Source: Halobaculum sp. MBLA0147
Lineage (GTDB): Archaea; Halobacteriota; Halobacteria; Halobacteriales; Haloferacaceae
Length of the DNA stretch: 64,000 bases
NCBI RefSeq assembly: GCF_041361345.1
Contig: NZ_JBGKAD010000001.1
Span: forward strand, 1,736,001 to 1,800,000
Direction of reading: 5' to 3'
Shown: in pieces, positions 33,681 to 40,075 of the stretch
Position numbering within the stretch: the stretch's first letter is position 1
Layout of the letters: every line of letters begins with the position of its first letter
The notes under the pieces: generated by a model
Seen by the model: the letters and a program-made list of their open reading frames with translations, nothing else
Told to the model about the DNA's origin: nothing
The model's database searches: none
Position numbers and translations under genes: made by a program

Positions 33681-34937
33681 TCAGGGCCAGTTGCCGGAGT
33701 TCTCGTAGGCGTCGACGACGCGCTGGATCGCGACGACGTACGCCGCGGTCCGGAGGTTCGGCGCGTCGGTGTCCTCGAAGGCGTCGATCATGTCGTCGAA
33801 GCCGTCCGTGATGTGCCGTTCCAGTTCCTCGTTGACCTTCTCCTCGGTCCAGTAGAAGCGCTGGCGGTTCTGGACCCACTCGAAGTACGAGACGGTGACA
33901 CCGCCCGCGTTCGCGAGGATGTCCGGGACGACGTAGGTGTCGGACTCCGCGAGCACGTCGTCGGCCTCGGGGGTCAGCGGCCCGTTGGCGGCCTCGACGA
34001 TCACGTCCGCCTGCACGTCCGTCGCGAGGTCACCGTCGATGGCGTTCTCGAGAGCCGCCGGCACCAGCAGGTCCACGTCCAGCGTCAGCAGGTCCTCGTT
34101 GGTCAGCTCCTCGGCGGCACCCTCGTAGCCGCTGACGGACCCGGTCTCGCGTTTGAACTCCTTGACGGCGACCGCGTCGAGTCCGTCGGGGTCGTGGATC
34201 GCGCCGCTGGAGTCGGAGACGGCGACGACGGTGCCGCCCTGCCGTTCGATCAACTTCGCGGCGATCCAGCCGGCGTTGCCGTACCCCTGCACGGCGACCG
34301 TCGCGTCCGCGAGGTCGCGGTCGAGGTACTCGAAGATCTCGCGGCTGGCGAACATCGTCGAGCGGCCGGTCGCCTCGACGCGACCGGCACTCCCGCCGTT
34401 GTCCGGTGCCTTGCCGGTGATGACGCCCGGCGCGGTCGTGTTCTCCAGCGTCTCGTAGGTGTCTTTGATCCAGTTCATCTCCCGCTGGCCCGTGTTCACG
34501 TCCGGCGCGGGCACGTCGCGGTCGACCCCGATCAGCGGGCGGAGTTCCTTCCCGAACGACCGCGTGAGCCGTTCGAGTTCGCTCTCGGAGTACTCCGACG
34601 GGTCGACGACGATGCCACCCTTCCCACCGCCGTAGGGGACGTTCGCGATGGCACACTTGTACACCATCCAGCCGGACAGCGCCTTCACCTCGTCGCGCGT
34701 GACGCCCGGGTGGTAGCGGATCCCGCCCTTGTACGGCCCGCGGTCGCCGTTGAACTGCGAGCGGAACGCCTCGAACACCTCGATGGTGCCGTCGTCGAGT
34801 TCCACCGAGAGGTTCGTCTCCAGTACGCGCTCGGGGTGTTTCAGCCGCGCGAGCACGTCGTCGGCCACGTCGAGGTGACGCGCCGCGTCGTCGATCTGCT
34901 CTTGGAGACTCTCGAACGGGTTCGCCTCGTCGGACAT
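33681..34937 (-). CDS. gdh: Glutamate dehydrogenase
   Basis: A 418-residue hexameric-type enzyme interconverting glutamate and 2-oxoglutarate plus ammonium. [13 protein letters not shown] and [14 protein letters not shown] contain the substrate-binding lysines, and [16 protein letters not shown] is the Rossmann nucleotide loop; the final third has [17 protein letters not shown]. Coenzyme preference cannot be read with certainty. Length is normal. ATG at 34937. It lies downstream of, and on the same strand as, a CitE-like lyase gene, 302 bp away, so 2-oxoglutarate/glutamate supply to a neighbouring CoA pathway is possible. Confidence 0.96.
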
Positions 34938-35239: not shown

Positions 35240-35249
35240 CTACTCTCCC
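35136..35249. repeat. Five imperfect 23-bp tandem repeats
   Basis: Units of type ggtacgtcggggactactcc begin at about 35136, 35159, 35181, 35204 and 35227; spacing is 22-23 bp. The last unit runs over the stop codon and final codons of the CitE-like gene. Copies are diverged, so the array is older than the in-frame repeats. It lies about 200-310 bp upstream of gdh. Confidence 0.75.
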
Positions 35250-36106
35250 GGCTCGAACGCTCGTCCGGCGGCGAGTGCGCGGTCGCGGACGCGTTCGGCC
35301 TGTGCGATCAGGGGTGCGTCGATCATCTCGCCGTCGACCTCGAAGACGCCGCGTCCCTCGGCGGCGGCGCGGTCGCGGGCCGCCAACACCCGTTCGGCCC
35401 ACGCGATCCGGTCGTCGTCGGGGGTGAACGCCTCGTTGATCGGCCCGACCTGCGACGGGTGGATCGCCATCTTCCCGTCGTAGCCGAACTCGACGGCCGT
35501 CCGGGTGTCCTCGCGGAGTCCCGCCTCGTCGGAGAAGTCCGTGTAGAGGGTGTCGACGGCGTCGATTCCCGCCGCGGCGGCGGCGGTCACCACGCGCTGG
35601 CGGGCGTACAGCACCTCCGTCCCCGCGTCCGTGCGGGTCGCGCCCACGTCGGCCGCCAGATCCTCCGCGCCGAACACCAGCGCGTCCGTCGCCGGCTCGT
35701 CGGCGACGGAGACGGCGTTCACGACGCCGCGTGCGGTCTCCAACAGTGCGAGCACCGGACAGTCGAAGCCGTGGATCGACAGCAGGTCGGCCGTCTCCGC
35801 GACCGTCTCGGCGTCGGCCACCTTCGGTACCATCACGGAGTCCGGCACCGCGTCGGCGTCTGCCAGCGCCGCGAGGTCGGCGTCGCGAGCCTCGGGTGTC
35901 CCGCCGAGTCTGACGCACACCTCCGCGTCCGGGTCGAACTCGGGGTCCGTCAGGACGGCGGCGACCGCCTCGCGGGCCGCCGGGCGGGCGTCGGGTGCGA
36001 CGGCGTCCTCGAGGTCGATCGCGATCACGTCCGGGTCCGCACGCGGGGCCTTGCGGACCAGGTCGGGCTGGTCGCCGGGCGAGAACAGGAGACTACGTCT
36101 GGGCAC
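35240..36106 (-). CDS. CitE-like HpcH/HpaI family CoA-ester lyase
   Basis: A 288-residue TIM-barrel lyase. RRSLLFSPGDQPD at the start, AIDLEDAVAP near 30-39, and GAEDLAADVG in the middle (metal ligands Asp/Glu) are CitE hallmarks. Family reactions cleave malyl-CoA, methylmalyl-CoA or citramalyl-CoA. Haloarchaea use one such enzyme in the methylaspartate cycle. The MaoC gene next to it, divergently transcribed, would supply or remove the hydroxyacyl-CoA. GTG at 36106 matches the usual family start; an in-frame TTG ten codons upstream is less likely. The exact substrate is not determined from sequence. Confidence 0.88.
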   Translation of the reverse strand: MPRRSLLFSPGDQPDLVRKAPRADPDVIAIDLEDAVAPDARPAAREAVAAVLTDPEFDPDAEVCVRLGGTPEARDADLAALADADAVPDSVMVPKVADAETVAETADLLSIHGFDCPVLALLETARGVVNAVSVADEPATDALVFGAEDLAADVGATRTDAGTEVLYARQRVVTAAAAAGIDAVDTLYTDFSDEAGLREDTRTAVEFGYDGKMAIHPSQVGPINEAFTPDDDRIAWAERVLAARDRAAAEGRGVFEVDGEMIDAPLIAQAERVRDRALAAGRAFEPGE

Positions 36107-36249
36107 ACCCGGGGTGTGTGCCGGTGACGGCTTCAACCATGTGGTCGGGGGTCCCCGAGTGCGAGTCTCACCCGACGGGTCACCCGTGTCTGAACACTAC
36201 CGAGCGGCGACCCGGAAGACTCTCGGCGGTCGTCGCCGACGGCTCGCGT

Positions 36250-36792
36250 GTGACCGGCAAGTACTACGAGGAGTTCACGGTCGGAGAGACGATCACCCAC
36301 GAGAAGCGGCGGACGATCAGCGAGCGGGACAACCAGGTGTTCTGTGACACGACGATGAACCAGCAGCCGCTGCACCTGGACGCCGACTTCGCCGCCGACA
36401 CCCAGTTCGGGGAGCGTCTGGTCAACGGGTTGCTCACGATGAGTACCGCCGTCGGGCTCTCGATCCCGGACACGACGGACGGCACCATCGTCGCCAACCT
36501 CTCGTACGACGACGTGACCCACCCGAACCCGGTGTTCCACGGCGACACGATCTACGCCCGTTCGACGGTGACGGACAAGCGGGAGACCAGCGACGGCGAG
36601 CGCGGCGTGGTCACGATGCGCGTCGAGGCGTTCGTCGTCGCCGACGCCGACCCGGAGACCGGGGCGGTCGGCGATGACGCCGCCCGCGACGCCGTCGATC
36701 CCGACGAGGTGACCGACGACGGCGACGTGTTGGTGTGCGAGTTCGAGCGGACCGTCCTCTCGTTGAAGCGGCCCGCCGCGGACGCGGACTGA
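36250..36792 (+). CDS. MaoC-like hot-dog dehydratase
   Basis: A 180-residue single hot-dog domain. The active-site block is DTTMNQQPLHLDADFA, with Asn and His in the D-x3-N-x4-H type hydratase pattern, followed by FGERLVNGLLTMSTAVGLS and TIVANLSYDDVTHPNPVFHGDTIYA. It would hydrate an enoyl-CoA such as mesaconyl-CoA. The known two-domain mesaconyl-CoA hydratases are longer, so the assignment is open. The GTG at 36250 precedes the conserved KYYEEFTVGET. It is divergent from the CitE-like gene across 143 bp, implying a shared control region. Confidence 0.85.
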   Translation: MTGKYYEEFTVGETITHEKRRTISERDNQVFCDTTMNQQPLHLDADFAADTQFGERLVNGLLTMSTAVGLSIPDTTDGTIVANLSYDDVTHPNPVFHGDTIYARSTVTDKRETSDGERGVVTMRVEAFVVADADPETGAVGDDAARDAVDPDEVTDDGDVLVCEFERTVLSLKRPAADAD

Positions 36793-36937
36793 GTCGGGTG
36801 TCGTCCGGGTGGTCGTGGTCGAGTCGGGTCGGTGGCGGTCGGGACCACGACTCTCGTCCCGAGCACGATGAGGAGTGGCGGGGACACCACCGGGGGCGCC
36901 CCCCGGACCGGTGCTGCCCTCCCGTCCCCGTCGTCAA

Positions 36938-36990
36938 CCTGTCAGTTACATTATCACAAGTGAACAGAATTTTTCCTCTACTACAAGTCG
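36938..36990 (+). promoter_or_regulatory. AT-rich promoter island of the cysteine-rich peptide gene
   Basis: About 50 bp far richer in A and T than the surroundings precede the small gene at 37012. It holds TTACATTATC (about 36946) and GAATTTTTCC (36967-36976). The second is roughly 40 bp before the ATG, which would leave a short leader. I cannot tell which TATA is used. Confidence 0.45.
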
Positions 36991-37011
36991 TTTCCGTGCC
37001 TCGAAGGTCGT

Positions 37012-37287
37012 ATGCGACGGAGAACACTCCTCCGACGTACCGGACAGTTCGGCGCACTGGCGGTCGGCGGGGCCGGCTTGGCGGCCGCGTCCGACGGCGA
37101 CTACTCTCACGTCGTCTACGAGACCGAAGCCGGCGACCGTGAAGTGGTGCCCGTCGCGGAGTTCCGCGACCGCGACGGGCCGGCCCGTGCAGCCTGTGAC
37201 GAAATCGAGTGCACCGTCTACGACTGTGACGACTGTCCCGAGAGCTGTTACGACACCTGTGGTGGGTGTCTCTGCAGTTCGCCCTGA
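37012..37287 (+). CDS. Tat-exported small cysteine-rich protein
   Basis: A 91-residue precursor. The N-terminus MRRRTLLRRTGQFGALAVGG is a Tat-like signal, with probable cleavage after about residue 26 (GLAAAS). A short strand-forming middle follows (YSHVVYETEAGDREVVPV). The C-terminal 30 residues hold eight cysteines spaced C-x4-C-x4-C-x2-C-x3-C-x3-C-x2-C-x1-C. Such density suggests disulfide knots or metal binding outside the cell. It has no recognised family; a microhalocin-like or matrix role is possible. A DoxX-like membrane gene follows 56 bp downstream on the same strand. Confidence 0.75.
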   Translation: MRRRTLLRRTGQFGALAVGGAGLAAASDGDYSHVVYETEAGDREVVPVAEFRDRDGPARAACDEIECTVYDCDDCPESCYDTCGGCLCSSP

Positions 37288-37342
37288 GACGAGTGGGCTG
37301 GGACCGCCGCCGTTTTTCACCCGACGCGTTCGAGAGACGCCC

Positions 37343-37819
37343 GTGTCCCGTCGCAGCGACGGTAGGGAGTCCGGAACCGCCGCCCGTCTGTGGGTTCACG
37401 GCACCACCCTCGCGACGCGCGTGGCGGCGGCGCTGGCCGCTCGCCTCCCGGCGACGGCGACGCTCGCGCGGTGGGGGTTGGCGGCGATGCTCGTCGCCGC
37501 CGGCGTCCACAAACTGCTCCAGCCCGCCGACTGGGCGGTGTACGTCACCGACTGGCTCGCGCCGTGGCTCGTCGTCTCGCCAGTCACGTTCATGTTGGTC
37601 AACGGGTGGCTGGAACTGGGGTTCGCGGCGCTCCTACTCGCGGACCGCTACACCGCGGTCGCCGCGACGGTCGCGTGGGTGTCGCTGCTCGCGACGATCG
37701 CGTACCTCTGTGTCGTGTGGGTCACCACCGGCCGGTTCGGGGACGTGATCGCCCGCGACGTGGGCCTGCTCGCGCTGGCCCTCGTCGTGTTCGCCGACGC
37801 AGTACGAGCGTCGTCGTGA
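37343..37819 (+). CDS. DoxX-like membrane protein
   Basis: A 158-residue protein with four predicted membrane helices: ARWGLAAMLVAAGVHKLL, SPVTFMLVNGWLELGFAALLL, TAVAATVAWVSLLATIAYLCVV and DVGLLALALVVFADAV. The first helix with GVHKLLQPADW is the usual DoxX/DoxD-type start. Members occur in oxidoreductase and thiosulfate metabolism, but many are uncharacterised. GTG at 37343 is assigned because upstream residues are not conserved. Being 56 bp behind a disulfide-rich exported protein raises the possibility of a redox link, which is speculative. Confidence 0.75.
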   Translation: MSRRSDGRESGTAARLWVHGTTLATRVAAALAARLPATATLARWGLAAMLVAAGVHKLLQPADWAVYVTDWLAPWLVVSPVTFMLVNGWLELGFAALLLADRYTAVAATVAWVSLLATIAYLCVVWVTTGRFGDVIARDVGLLALALVVFADAVRASS

Positions 37820-37927: not shown

Positions 37928-38071
37928 ATGGCAACGGACGACGGTCGGATCGACCGCCTGGAGGGCTGTATCACCGACGAGACGGTCGCCGACGGGTCGC
38001 TAGATCCACACGCGCTCGAACTCGAAGGACTGTGGATCGACGACCTTCCCGTAGGCGGGCGAGACTCGTGA
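37928..38071 (+). CDS. Small hypothetical acidic protein (47 aa)
   Basis: A 47-residue frame, MATDDGRIDRLEGCITDET at the start, ending DDLPVGGRDS. The acidic composition and the ATG right after a TATA-like TATTTGTACC (about 25 bp upstream) support a real leaderless gene. It contains one cysteine and no membrane segment. No homologue comes to mind. It stops 34 bp before the convergent acyl-CoA carboxylase gene. Confidence 0.5.
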   Translation: MATDDGRIDRLEGCITDETVADGSLDPHALELEGLWIDDLPVGGRDS

Positions 38072-38105: not shown

Positions 38106-39872
38106 CTACAGGATCGTCCCGTGCTTCTTGTCCGGCACGCTCTTCTCGATGTCGGCGTAGAAGTCGAAGCGGTTGACCAGTTCCTCGCGGAGTCGCGAGG
38201 GTTCGACCACCTCGTCGATCACGACCTCGCTGGCCATCCGGTGGATGTCGATGTCGCGGCGGTACTCCTCGCGGAGCTCCTGTTCGCGCTCGGCGCGGGC
38301 CTCCTCGTCGTCGATGTCGGCGAGTTCGTTCGCGTAGACGGCGTTGATCGCCGCCTCCGGGCCCATGATCCCGATCTCGCCCGACGGGAGTCCGATCACC
38401 GACTCCGGCTCGTAGGCCGGGCCACCCATCGCGTAGATCCCCGCGCCGTACGCCTTCCGGACGACGACGGTCTGTTGGGGCACCGTCGCCGAGGAGGTGG
38501 CGTAGATGAACTTCTTCCCCTTCTCCAGGATGGCGTCCTTCTCGACGGAGGAGCCGGCCATGAACCCCGGCGTGTCACAGAGGTACAACAGCGGGATCTC
38601 GTAGGCGTCACACGTCCAGACGAACTCCGCGGCCTTCTCGGCGGCGTCCGGGAAGATCGCCCCCGACCGCTGGGCGGGCTGGTTGGCGACGATCCCGACC
38701 GGCCGGCCGTCGATCCGCGCGAAGGCCGTGACGATCTCCTTGCCGTACTCCGGTTTCAACTCGAAGACCGAGTCGGCGTCGACGACGCGGTCGAGCAGAT
38801 CCGTCACGTCGTACGCGCGGTTCGGCTCGTCGGGGATCACCGCGTCCGTCCCACGCGGGTCGAGTGCGGGCGGCGTCGGGTCGGCGCGTGGCGGGTCCTC
38901 GCCGGCCACGTCCGGGAGGTACGACACCAACTGCGCGACGAGTTCGCGGGCGTGTTCCTCGTCGTCGGCGACGAGGTCCGCGCTGCCGGAGTACTTCGCG
39001 TGGACCGCCGGCCCACCCAACTCGTCCATCTCGATCTCCTCGCCGGTGACCATCTGGACCATCCGCGGGGAGGCGATCGCCATCGCGGACATCCCCTCGA
39101 CCATGATGGTGAAGTCCGCGAACACCGGGGTGTACGCCGCCCCGGCGATACACGGCCCGTACAACACACAGATCTGCGGGACGCGCCCCGACAGCATCGA
39201 GTGGTTGTAGTAGTACTTCCCGATCCCCTCGCGGTTGGCGAAGAAGCCCGTCTGCTGGTCGATCCGGCCGCCCGAGGAGTCCATCAGGTAGAGGACGGGT
39301 TTGCCGTTCTTCAACGCGCGCTGTTGCATCCGGAGGAACTTCTCGACTCCCTTCGCGGCCATCGACCCCGCCTTGACGGTGAAGTCGTTGGCCATGACGT
39401 GCATGTCGCGGCCCTCGAACTCCGCCGCGCCGGTGATCAGTCCGTCCGCGGGGATCCGGTCGCTCTCGTCGTAGTCGTCCCCGTCCGGGGAGTCGGGGTG
39501 CCACTCGTCGAAGTTGGCGAACCGGCCGTCCTCGAAGGTGAGCGCGTCGCCCGGGTCGCCGTCCGCGTCGCCGAACCAGAGGTTGAGTCGGTCGCGGACG
39601 AACAGTTTCCCCTGGTCGGGGAGTCGGTCCTTGTACTTCTGGGGGCCACCCTGGAGGATGTCGGCGATCTCCTCGCGGAGTCGCTGCTCGCGCTCACCGG
39701 GACGTTCCCCGTCGTCGACGGGGTAGTCAGGTTCGGGCGCGGTCGCCGTCGCCGTCGGCTCCTCGCCGTCGCCCGCGACGACCTCGACGTCGACCGCGAG
39801 GTGTTCCGCCAGCGCCGAGGCGATGGCGGACGCCTCCTCCGTGGTCGCACCCTCTCCGACGTGGACTCGCAT
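38106..39872 (-). CDS. Acyl-CoA carboxylase carboxyltransferase with N-terminal epsilon-like domain
   Basis: A 588-residue biotin-dependent carboxyltransferase, probably for propionyl-CoA or acetyl-CoA. Two crotonase folds are visible: GSMAAKGVEKFLRMQQRAL, DSSGGRIDQQ and GPCIAGAAYTPVFADF, then QPAQRSGAIF, CDTPGFMAGSS and the oxyanion block AYGAGIYAMGGPA. Residues 1-60 are unusual: RVHVGEGATTEEASAIASAL resembles the small epsilon subunit of actinobacterial acyl-CoA carboxylases. A biotin carboxylase/BCCP subunit is not in the window. ATG at 39872. The gene is divergent from the AbrB-like gene. Confidence 0.9.
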   Translation of the reverse strand: MRVHVGEGATTEEASAIASALAEHLAVDVEVVAGDGEEPTATATAPEPDYPVDDGERPGEREQRLREEIADILQGGPQKYKDRLPDQGKLFVRDRLNLWFGDADGDPGDALTFEDGRFANFDEWHPDSPDGDDYDESDRIPADGLITGAAEFEGRDMHVMANDFTVKAGSMAAKGVEKFLRMQQRALKNGKPVLYLMDSSGGRIDQQTGFFANREGIGKYYYNHSMLSGRVPQICVLYGPCIAGAAYTPVFADFTIMVEGMSAMAIASPRMVQMVTGEEIEMDELGGPAVHAKYSGSADLVADDEEHARELVAQLVSYLPDVAGEDPPRADPTPPALDPRGTDAVIPDEPNRAYDVTDLLDRVVDADSVFELKPEYGKEIVTAFARIDGRPVGIVANQPAQRSGAIFPDAAEKAAEFVWTCDAYEIPLLYLCDTPGFMAGSSVEKDAILEKGKKFIYATSSATVPQQTVVVRKAYGAGIYAMGGPAYEPESVIGLPSGEIGIMGPEAAINAVYANELADIDDEEARAEREQELREEYRRDIDIHRMASEVVIDEVVEPSRLREELVNRFDFYADIEKSVPDKKHGTIL

Positions 39873-40075
39873 ACGGATCCGGTGGCAGGTTTTGCGGAAA
39901 ACCGTTTCTATGCCTCGTGGCCGACCACCACCGGAACGGTCCGTCGTGTCCGTGTGGTGTGTGGCGGGAGGCACGTCCGTGTGGCGGGAGGACGGGAGAC
40001 GCGCCGGGCGGCGCGAGAGGTCGTAAACCAACACTTTTGTATCTCGTACGGCGAACATCAAGGCAACTCAGGTCG

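What the first reader, a model, noticed from the sequence alone, without database searches (positions are those of the whole stretch)
37012..37287. Tat-exported peptide with eight clustered cysteines
Seen: twin-arginine signal and C-x4-C-x4-C-x2-C-x3-C-x3-C-x2-C-x1-C in the last 30 residues. Known: microhalocins such as halocin C8 are Tat-exported and cysteine-rich, but the spacing here is not the same. Its promoter region is strikingly AT-rich. It may be a new small secreted peptide (antagonist, matrix or redox protein).
Basis: partly seen in the sequence, partly recalled or inferred. Interest (0 to 1): 0.62.

Follow-up and report, generated by a model that had tools for sequence, protein, structure and literature searches.

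The report
Secreted cysteine-rich haloarchaeal peptide family
This salt-loving archaeon carries a small gene for an exported peptide rich in cysteines, one member of an unrecognised family whose front halves are alike but whose cysteine-rich ends differ from locus to locus, which makes it a candidate for a new set of secreted archaeal effector peptides.

Summary
In detail: 37012-37287(+) encodes 91 residues with a Tat-type signal and exactly the stated eight-cysteine spacing, behind the most AT-rich stretch of the window. No Pfam, NCBIfam, PHROGs or PADLOC family fits. Profile searches place it in an unnamed haloarchaeal family: Tat signal, short pro-region, C-terminal cysteine-rich core. I collected 31 members; all 31 cores have an even cysteine number, orthologues are under purifying selection, and upstream regions are AT-rich. 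Full-length members occur in 12 of 28 genomes of another family (mostly one genus, very probably Halorussus) but in 1 of 170 genomes of the window's own family: this one. It lies between MaoC and DoxX genes that nearly touch in its three genus-mates, in a block that is a hotspot for these peptides elsewhere. Its leader resembles hotspot members, its core resembles members from a pilus locus, so leader and core have separate histories. Best reading: a Tat-exported, disulfide-bonded effector peptide, perhaps antagonistic. Export, disulfides and function are inferred; no immunity gene accompanies it. By the features tested it is neither a halocin C8 nor a LanM lanthipeptide.

The parts
37012..37287 (+). 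gene of the 91-aa Tat-exported cysteine-rich peptide (P0001)
   Evidence: relatives; purifying selection in relatives
37012..37089 (+). Tat-type signal, residues 1-26 (M-RRR-TLLRR ... LAAA); cleavage after AAA inferred
   Evidence: sequence; M1, R3, R4 invariant in the 19- and 24-member alignments
37090..37194 (+). pro-region, residues 27-61; residues 27-59 closest to hotspot peptides of genomes G185 and G416
   Evidence: Smith-Waterman 52 and 51, z 8.0 and 6.8
37195..37275 (+). cysteine core C62-C88; closest to the pilus-locus peptides of G198, G195, G415
   Evidence: scores 90, 86, 77; z 5.8, 4.7, 4.4 with cysteines held fixed
36929..37011 (+). AT-rich upstream region holding the window's lowest-GC 40- and 60-mers
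   Evidence: family-wide AT-rich upstream regions
36793..37342 (.). 550-bp stretch absent between MaoC and DoxX in the three genus-mates and in G010, G040, G005
36250..36792 (+). MaoC-type dehydratase (mesaconyl-CoA hydratase-like), conserved left neighbour
   Evidence: Pfam PF01575, PF19315; synteny
37343..37819 (+). DoxX-family membrane protein, conserved right neighbour
   Evidence: Pfam PF07681 above cut-off, PF07291 MauE below cut-off; synteny
35240..36136 (-). CitE-like lyase (name by eye), conserved in the hotspot block
33681..34937 (-). glutamate dehydrogenase-like gene (name by eye), conserved in the hotspot block
38106..40061 (-). propionyl-CoA carboxylase-like gene (name by eye; 5' end uncertain), right edge of the hotspot block

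Best explanation
P0001 is the precursor of a small extracellular peptide. The twin-arginine signal sends it out through Tat (inferred from sequence), the acidic pro-region acts as a leader (inferred), and the cysteine-rich core is oxidised to disulfides, probably four, giving a compact, resistant peptide (inferred from even cysteine numbers in 31 of 31 family members). The family keeps its leaders and varies its cores between loci, and here the core is shared with peptides that carry another leader. That is what a set of secreted effectors with different targets would look like, so I judge an antagonistic (archaeocin-like) role the most likely single function, ahead of signalling, metal binding or a surface-structure role. 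Shown: the gene, the family, the hotspot, the leader/core discordance, purifying selection. Inferred: export, disulfides, maturation. Not shown: activity.
For: Tat-type N-terminus with two invariant arginines in the alignments. Even cysteine count in 31 of 31 cores, in 11 sequence groups at 50% identity, with sizes 6, 8, 10, 12, 14 and 16. 52 of 465 pairs have similar leaders and unrelated cores; 34 have both similar. The window's leader goes with hotspot peptides and its core with pilus-locus peptides. Relatives evolve under purifying selection: pN/pS in the core 0.04-0.44 in the 12 of 13 relative pairs with a defined ratio. Patchy distribution: 12 of 28 genomes of family f17, 1 of 170 of the window's family; several genomes hold 2-3 different intact peptides in one block. 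Upstream AT-richness and a CTAGA motif (16 of 31 versus 1 of 124 control genes) suggest shared regulation, although the window copy lacks CTAG.
Against: No activity data. No immunity gene travels with it: the 550-bp insertion holds one credible ORF, and recurrent neighbours in other genomes are housekeeping genes that also occur without the peptide. Low pN/pS within orthologues is not the arms-race signal some toxins show. Members also lie beside superoxide dismutase, a thioredoxin-reductase-like gene and DoxX, which could point to a redox role. The window core is acidic (8 acidic, 0 basic residues), unlike cationic antimicrobials.
Confidence: 0.45

Rival explanations
1. Exported metal-binding peptide (metallothionein-like): cysteines bind Zn, Cu or Ag and Tat exports the folded, metal-loaded form.
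For: Cysteine density and CxC/CxxC/CC motifs; Tat exports folded proteins (general knowledge).
Against: Even cysteine number in 31 of 31 cores, including 6, 10 and 14, which do not divide into Cys4 sites; no adjacent metal transporter or regulator recognised in the loci read (by eye); no Pfam/NCBIfam metal-binding model.
Confidence: 0.15
2. Signalling, surface or pilus-associated peptide: it acts on the producer's own population or binds type IV pili or the S-layer.
For: Core relatives of the window peptide lie beside TadC-like and/or pilus-ATPase genes in G198, G195 and G415 (gene names by eye), and another member lies next to a type IV leader peptidase (FlaK-like) in G185. No immunity gene is needed in this reading.
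Against: The window member and most others are not near pilus genes.
Confidence: 0.2
3. Extracellular redox or disulfide-exchange peptide.
For: Neighbours DoxX (window), Mn superoxide dismutase (G185) and a thioredoxin-reductase-like protein (G414, G423, G421).
Against: DoxX is conserved at the locus in genus-mates without the peptide; no constant CxxC active site in the alignment.
Confidence: 0.1
4. Substrate of a LanM lanthipeptide synthetase.
For: G000 encodes a LanM about 227 kb away; 11 of 13 genomes with a peptide have a LanM match against 2 of 7 peptide-free genomes of genus g44. In G198 a LanM lies about 0.6 kb from the peptide gene.
Against: G414 (complete) has peptides and no LanM match, while G001-G003 have LanM matches and no peptide. 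Cores average 9.8 Cys but 2.7 Ser+Thr, and five have none; the leader motif Kx(Y/F)(D/E)xx(F/Y) is in 0 of 31. In G195 a LanM has its own short precursors, one containing the published PelA core.
Confidence: 0.04
5. Chance ORF without function.
For: Third-position GC 0.75, lower than neighbours; no close relative in the single-sequence searches.
Against: Homologous core and leader in other genomes, purifying selection in relatives.
Confidence: 0.02

Closest known systems
Halocin C8 (ProC8 / HalC8 microhalocin)
   Same: Haloarchaeal, Tat-exported precursor (Tat, 283-aa precursor and 76-aa product: passages of PMC11509114); its many cysteines are recalled, not from a call.
   Different: Larger Tat precursors with halocin C8-like tails (named by eye) turned up separately in G143, G103 and G015.
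Archaeal class II lanthipeptides (archalans, pellan)
   Same: Small ribosomal peptides containing cysteine, patchy, found in Halorussus (passages of PMC10105419 and PMC12144867).
   Different: Their precursors are short and have no Tat signal where I saw them (G195); the present cores are poor in Ser/Thr and occur in a genome without LanM.
HmHapP (HFX_0892) protease-activated antagonistic precursor of Haloferax mediterranei
   Same: Secreted haloarchaeal precursor that releases an antagonistic peptide (abstract and passages, PMC12893001).
   Different: There the active part is the helical N-terminus, and a text search found no mention of cysteine or disulfide.
Conotoxin-type precursors (recalled analogy only)
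   Same: Conserved signal and pro-region with different cysteine frameworks in paralogues.
   Different: No homology claimed; here orthologous cores are conserved.

Membership tests
Halocin C8 family | Tat-type signal | tested here: met
   sequence; Tat export of ProC8 from PMC11509114
Halocin C8 family | long immunity part fused before the halocin (283-aa precursor) | tested here: not met
   precursor is 91 aa; size of ProC8
Halocin C8 family | HalC8 core / family profile match | tested here: inconclusive
   P0001 matches nothing at E up to 10 in NCBIfam and Pfam, but three larger proteins with halocin C8-like tails (by eye) also match no halocin model, so the libraries may lack a usable model
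Halocin C8 family | antimicrobial activity | not testable with these tools
   needs a bioassay
Class II lanthipeptide | LanM in the genome / next to the precursor | tested here: inconclusive
   LanM in G000 but about 227 kb away; no match in complete G414, which has peptides
Class II lanthipeptide | archaeal LanA leader motif Kx(Y/F)(D/E)xx(F/Y) | tested here: not met
   0 of 31 members; motif as quoted in PMC10105419
Class II lanthipeptide | Ser/Thr to pair with Cys | tested here: inconclusive
   31 cores: mean 9.8 Cys, 2.7 Ser+Thr; only 6 of 31 have Ser+Thr at least half of Cys, but the window core (5 against 8) is one of them
Tat-exported disulfide-rich peptide family described here | Tat signal, pro-region, C-terminal core with even Cys number | tested here: met
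Tat-exported disulfide-rich peptide family described here | homology to other members | tested here: met
   the last 37 residues alone found G198 at E 0.008; searches give z up to 8.0 for the leader and 5.8 for the core. The E 5e-13 is by construction, since P0001 is a row of A5
Tat-exported disulfide-rich peptide family described here | CTAG motif upstream (frequent, not defining) | tested here: not met
   23 of 31 members have CTAG within 80 nt, the window copy does not

The most novel reading that the evidence does not exclude
Haloarchaea of the Halorussus type hold a modular secreted-peptide arsenal: conserved Tat leaders combined with exchangeable disulfide-bonded cores, kept as single-gene cassettes with a common type of AT-rich promoter in a few chromosomal hotspots, and passed between families. 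The window gene is a transferred cassette whose core came from a different locus than its leader.
Probability: 0.4. Interest if true: 0.8.

Novelty: new variant of a known kind. Interest (0 to 1): 0.62.

Why it matters
Secreted disulfide-rich peptides with one kind of leader and many cores are well known in animals (recalled) and little described in archaea. If real, this family gives a searchable handle (leader, even cysteine count, promoter) on archaeal effectors that libraries do not name, and one carrier genome appears to be Halorussus pelagicus, a cultured species, so secretion, disulfides and inhibition can be tested directly.

Tried and rejected
Close-relative searches found nothing and were misleading on their own: genome contigs, viral contigs, plasmids, phages, 60 relatives (its best non-self hits end in the Tat or pro-region of longer frames, and L003 overlaps another gene). 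The PDB gave one meaningless hit at E 0.71.

The exact cysteine pattern matched 7 of 391 genomes; outside the window all matches are CTG/TGC-type low-complexity repeats by eye. The genome contigs pattern scan returned 117 stretches (80 listed) from a truncated scan; I used all 117 only as a biased control (2 false hits in 857 kb, against 27 in 650 kb of haloarchaeal loci, many of which were fetched because they match) and did not study them.

Single-sequence folding gave mean pLDDT 58, so no fold search was made. No mobile-element signature, long repeats or Rfam family at the insertion; no second genomic copy of the DNA (only short or weak matches besides self). The sigma-70 and terminator scan found nothing and does not fit archaea.

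Lanthipeptide hypothesis raised by the LanM beside the G198 peptide: rejected. Hits with '1 TGA' inside looked like recoding but are the normal stop aligned past. Arms-race positive selection: not seen.

Rows dropped: a degenerate peptide copy in G415 (L259 4898-5197), two longer Tat proteins with cysteine tails (L220, L326), and all Tat-signal-only matches. My full-length criterion (match reaching position 91 or more of 101 in a short frame) was applied by eye to the listed rows. A possible extra copy in G422 (C115, with an internal TAG) was not followed up. G416's peptide is labelled 'Mao' but lies between the DUF5658 gene and PCC.

Full report
OBSERVATION. Window 37012-37287(+) encodes 91 residues starting MRRRTLLRR, with cysteines at 62, 67, 72, 75, 79, 83, 86 and 88. 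The cysteine-codon pattern occurs once in the window and never in 100 shuffles. Only this frame has a positive codon score, although third-position GC is 0.75 against 0.91-0.96 in the larger neighbours. The lowest-GC 40- and 60-mers of the window lie directly upstream.

LOCUS. The order GDH, CitE-like, MaoC, DoxX, PCC is conserved in relatives (only MaoC and DoxX lie on the short G003 contig). In genus-mates G001, G002 and G003, and in G010, G040 and G005, MaoC and DoxX nearly touch or overlap. In the window 550 bp lie between them, holding the AT-rich region and this gene. MaoC and DoxX are supported by Pfam; GDH, CitE-like and PCC are named by eye. G051 and G021 have other genes in the gap.

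FAMILY. A search of 391 class genomes with the last 37 residues found one real relative, in G198...CEENPDCCVYDCSDCPYDCYDGCRCAG with a Tat signal. An alignment of two found G195 and G185; an alignment of four found many more in family f17. I assembled 31 distinct peptides, the window's included. In the listed rows, 12 of 28 f17 genomes hold full-length members: 11 of 18 in genus g44, 1 of 9 in g74, 0 of 1 in g99. In the window's own family only G000 of 170 does; in the 391-genome class sample only G000 plus G151, G185, G195 and G198. G195 encodes a peptide containing STGCYISDKPVCI, the PelA core that PMC12144867 assigns to H. pelagicus RC-68 (passage), so g44 is very probably Halorussus. That naming is an inference.

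HOTSPOT. In f17 the GDH-PCC block holds several of these genes: three intact plus one degenerate copy in G415, three in G422, three in G195, two each in G185, G423, G414 and G417, one each in G416, G198, G419 and G151. Other members sit beside pilus ATPase or TadC-like genes, menB and a thioredoxin-reductase-like gene, a thermosome gene, Mn superoxide dismutase, and a FlaK-like peptidase (TadC, pilus ATPase and thermosome named by eye).

LEADER AND CORE HAVE SEPARATE HISTORIES. The pro-region of the window peptide matches the hotspot peptides of G185 (score 52, z 8.0) and G416 (51, z 6.8); the next best score is 32. Its core matches pilus-locus peptides of G198 (90, z 5.8), G195 (86, 4.7) and G415 (77, 4.4) with cysteines fixed during shuffling, but not G185 (22, z -1.7) or G416 (32, z 1.3). 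Over all 465 pairs, 52 have similar leaders (z 5 or more) and unrelated cores (z below 1.5), 34 have both similar, and 5 have similar cores with unrelated leaders, three of which involve the window peptide. Synonymous sites are highly diverged in these comparisons (pS 0.46-0.85), so any exchange is old; replacement of the core in the G185/G416 lineage would look the same.

DISULFIDES. All 31 cores have even cysteine numbers: 18 with 8, five with 14, four with 10, two with 16, one each with 6 and 12. The 31 are not independent; grouped at 50% core identity there are 11 groups (naive p 0.0005), at 40% only 4 (p 0.06). I read this as paired cysteines.

SELECTION AND REGULATION. pN/pS is below 1 in signal, pro-region and core of the 13 relative pairs wherever it is defined (core 0.04-0.44; pro-region up to 0.96). 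The window-to-G416 core comparison gives 1.21, as expected of unrelated cores. Upstream 80-nt GC averages 0.379 for the 31 peptides and 0.626 for 124 other genes of the same loci (30 of 31 against 8 of 124 at 0.47 or less); CTAGA occurs in 16 of 31 against 1 of 124. The window copy lacks CTAG.

KNOWN FAMILIES. No family in Pfam, NCBIfam, PHROGs or PADLOC beyond weak generic or chance matches, mainly Tat-signal models (PADLOC was given P0001 and two neighbours only). Halocin C8 differs in precursor size and has no usable model here. LanM substrates are disfavoured. Literature searches for the family listed no description that I recognised, but the library lacks most subscription papers, and a 2019 mBio survey of archaeal antimicrobial peptides that I recall is not held, so prior mention cannot be excluded.

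MECHANISM. Tat export, leader function, oxidation of the core and release are inferred. An antagonistic role fits patchiness, multiplicity and core diversity, but no immunity gene accompanies the window gene and orthologous cores are conserved. I therefore give that role 0.45, and a secreted disulfide-bonded peptide of whatever role about 0.75.

Noticed in passing
window 37928-38071 (+): A 47-residue acidic ORF (MATDDGRIDRLEGCITDETVADG..., read by eye) between DoxX and PCC; possible small gene, conservation not tested.
   Followed up: no
L183 251-3496 and L179 965-1174 (genome G198): A LanM gene lies next to the peptide, beside a truncated copy of the 5' end of the TadC-like gene, as if it had been inserted there.
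   Followed up: partly
L264, L267, L278, L306, L326, L220: Longer Tat precursors (about 200-380 aa) with cysteine-rich C-termini; several look like halocin C8-type precursors, and all six match no specific family model, only Tat-signal or chance matches.
   Followed up: partly
G000:C1:1999831-2002833 (L338): The window's genome encodes its own class II LanM synthetase in a frame of 1239 codons; no precursor was identified next to it.
   Followed up: partly
L259 4898-5197 (genome G415): A degenerate copy of the peptide family: pro-region and 12-cysteine core (counted by eye) but no signal in frame, suggesting gene decay in the hotspot.
   Followed up: no
L339 13859-14011 and 14171-14323 (genome G195): Two short lanthipeptide precursors, one containing the published PelA core, within about 10 kb of the pilus-locus peptide gene.
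   Followed up: no
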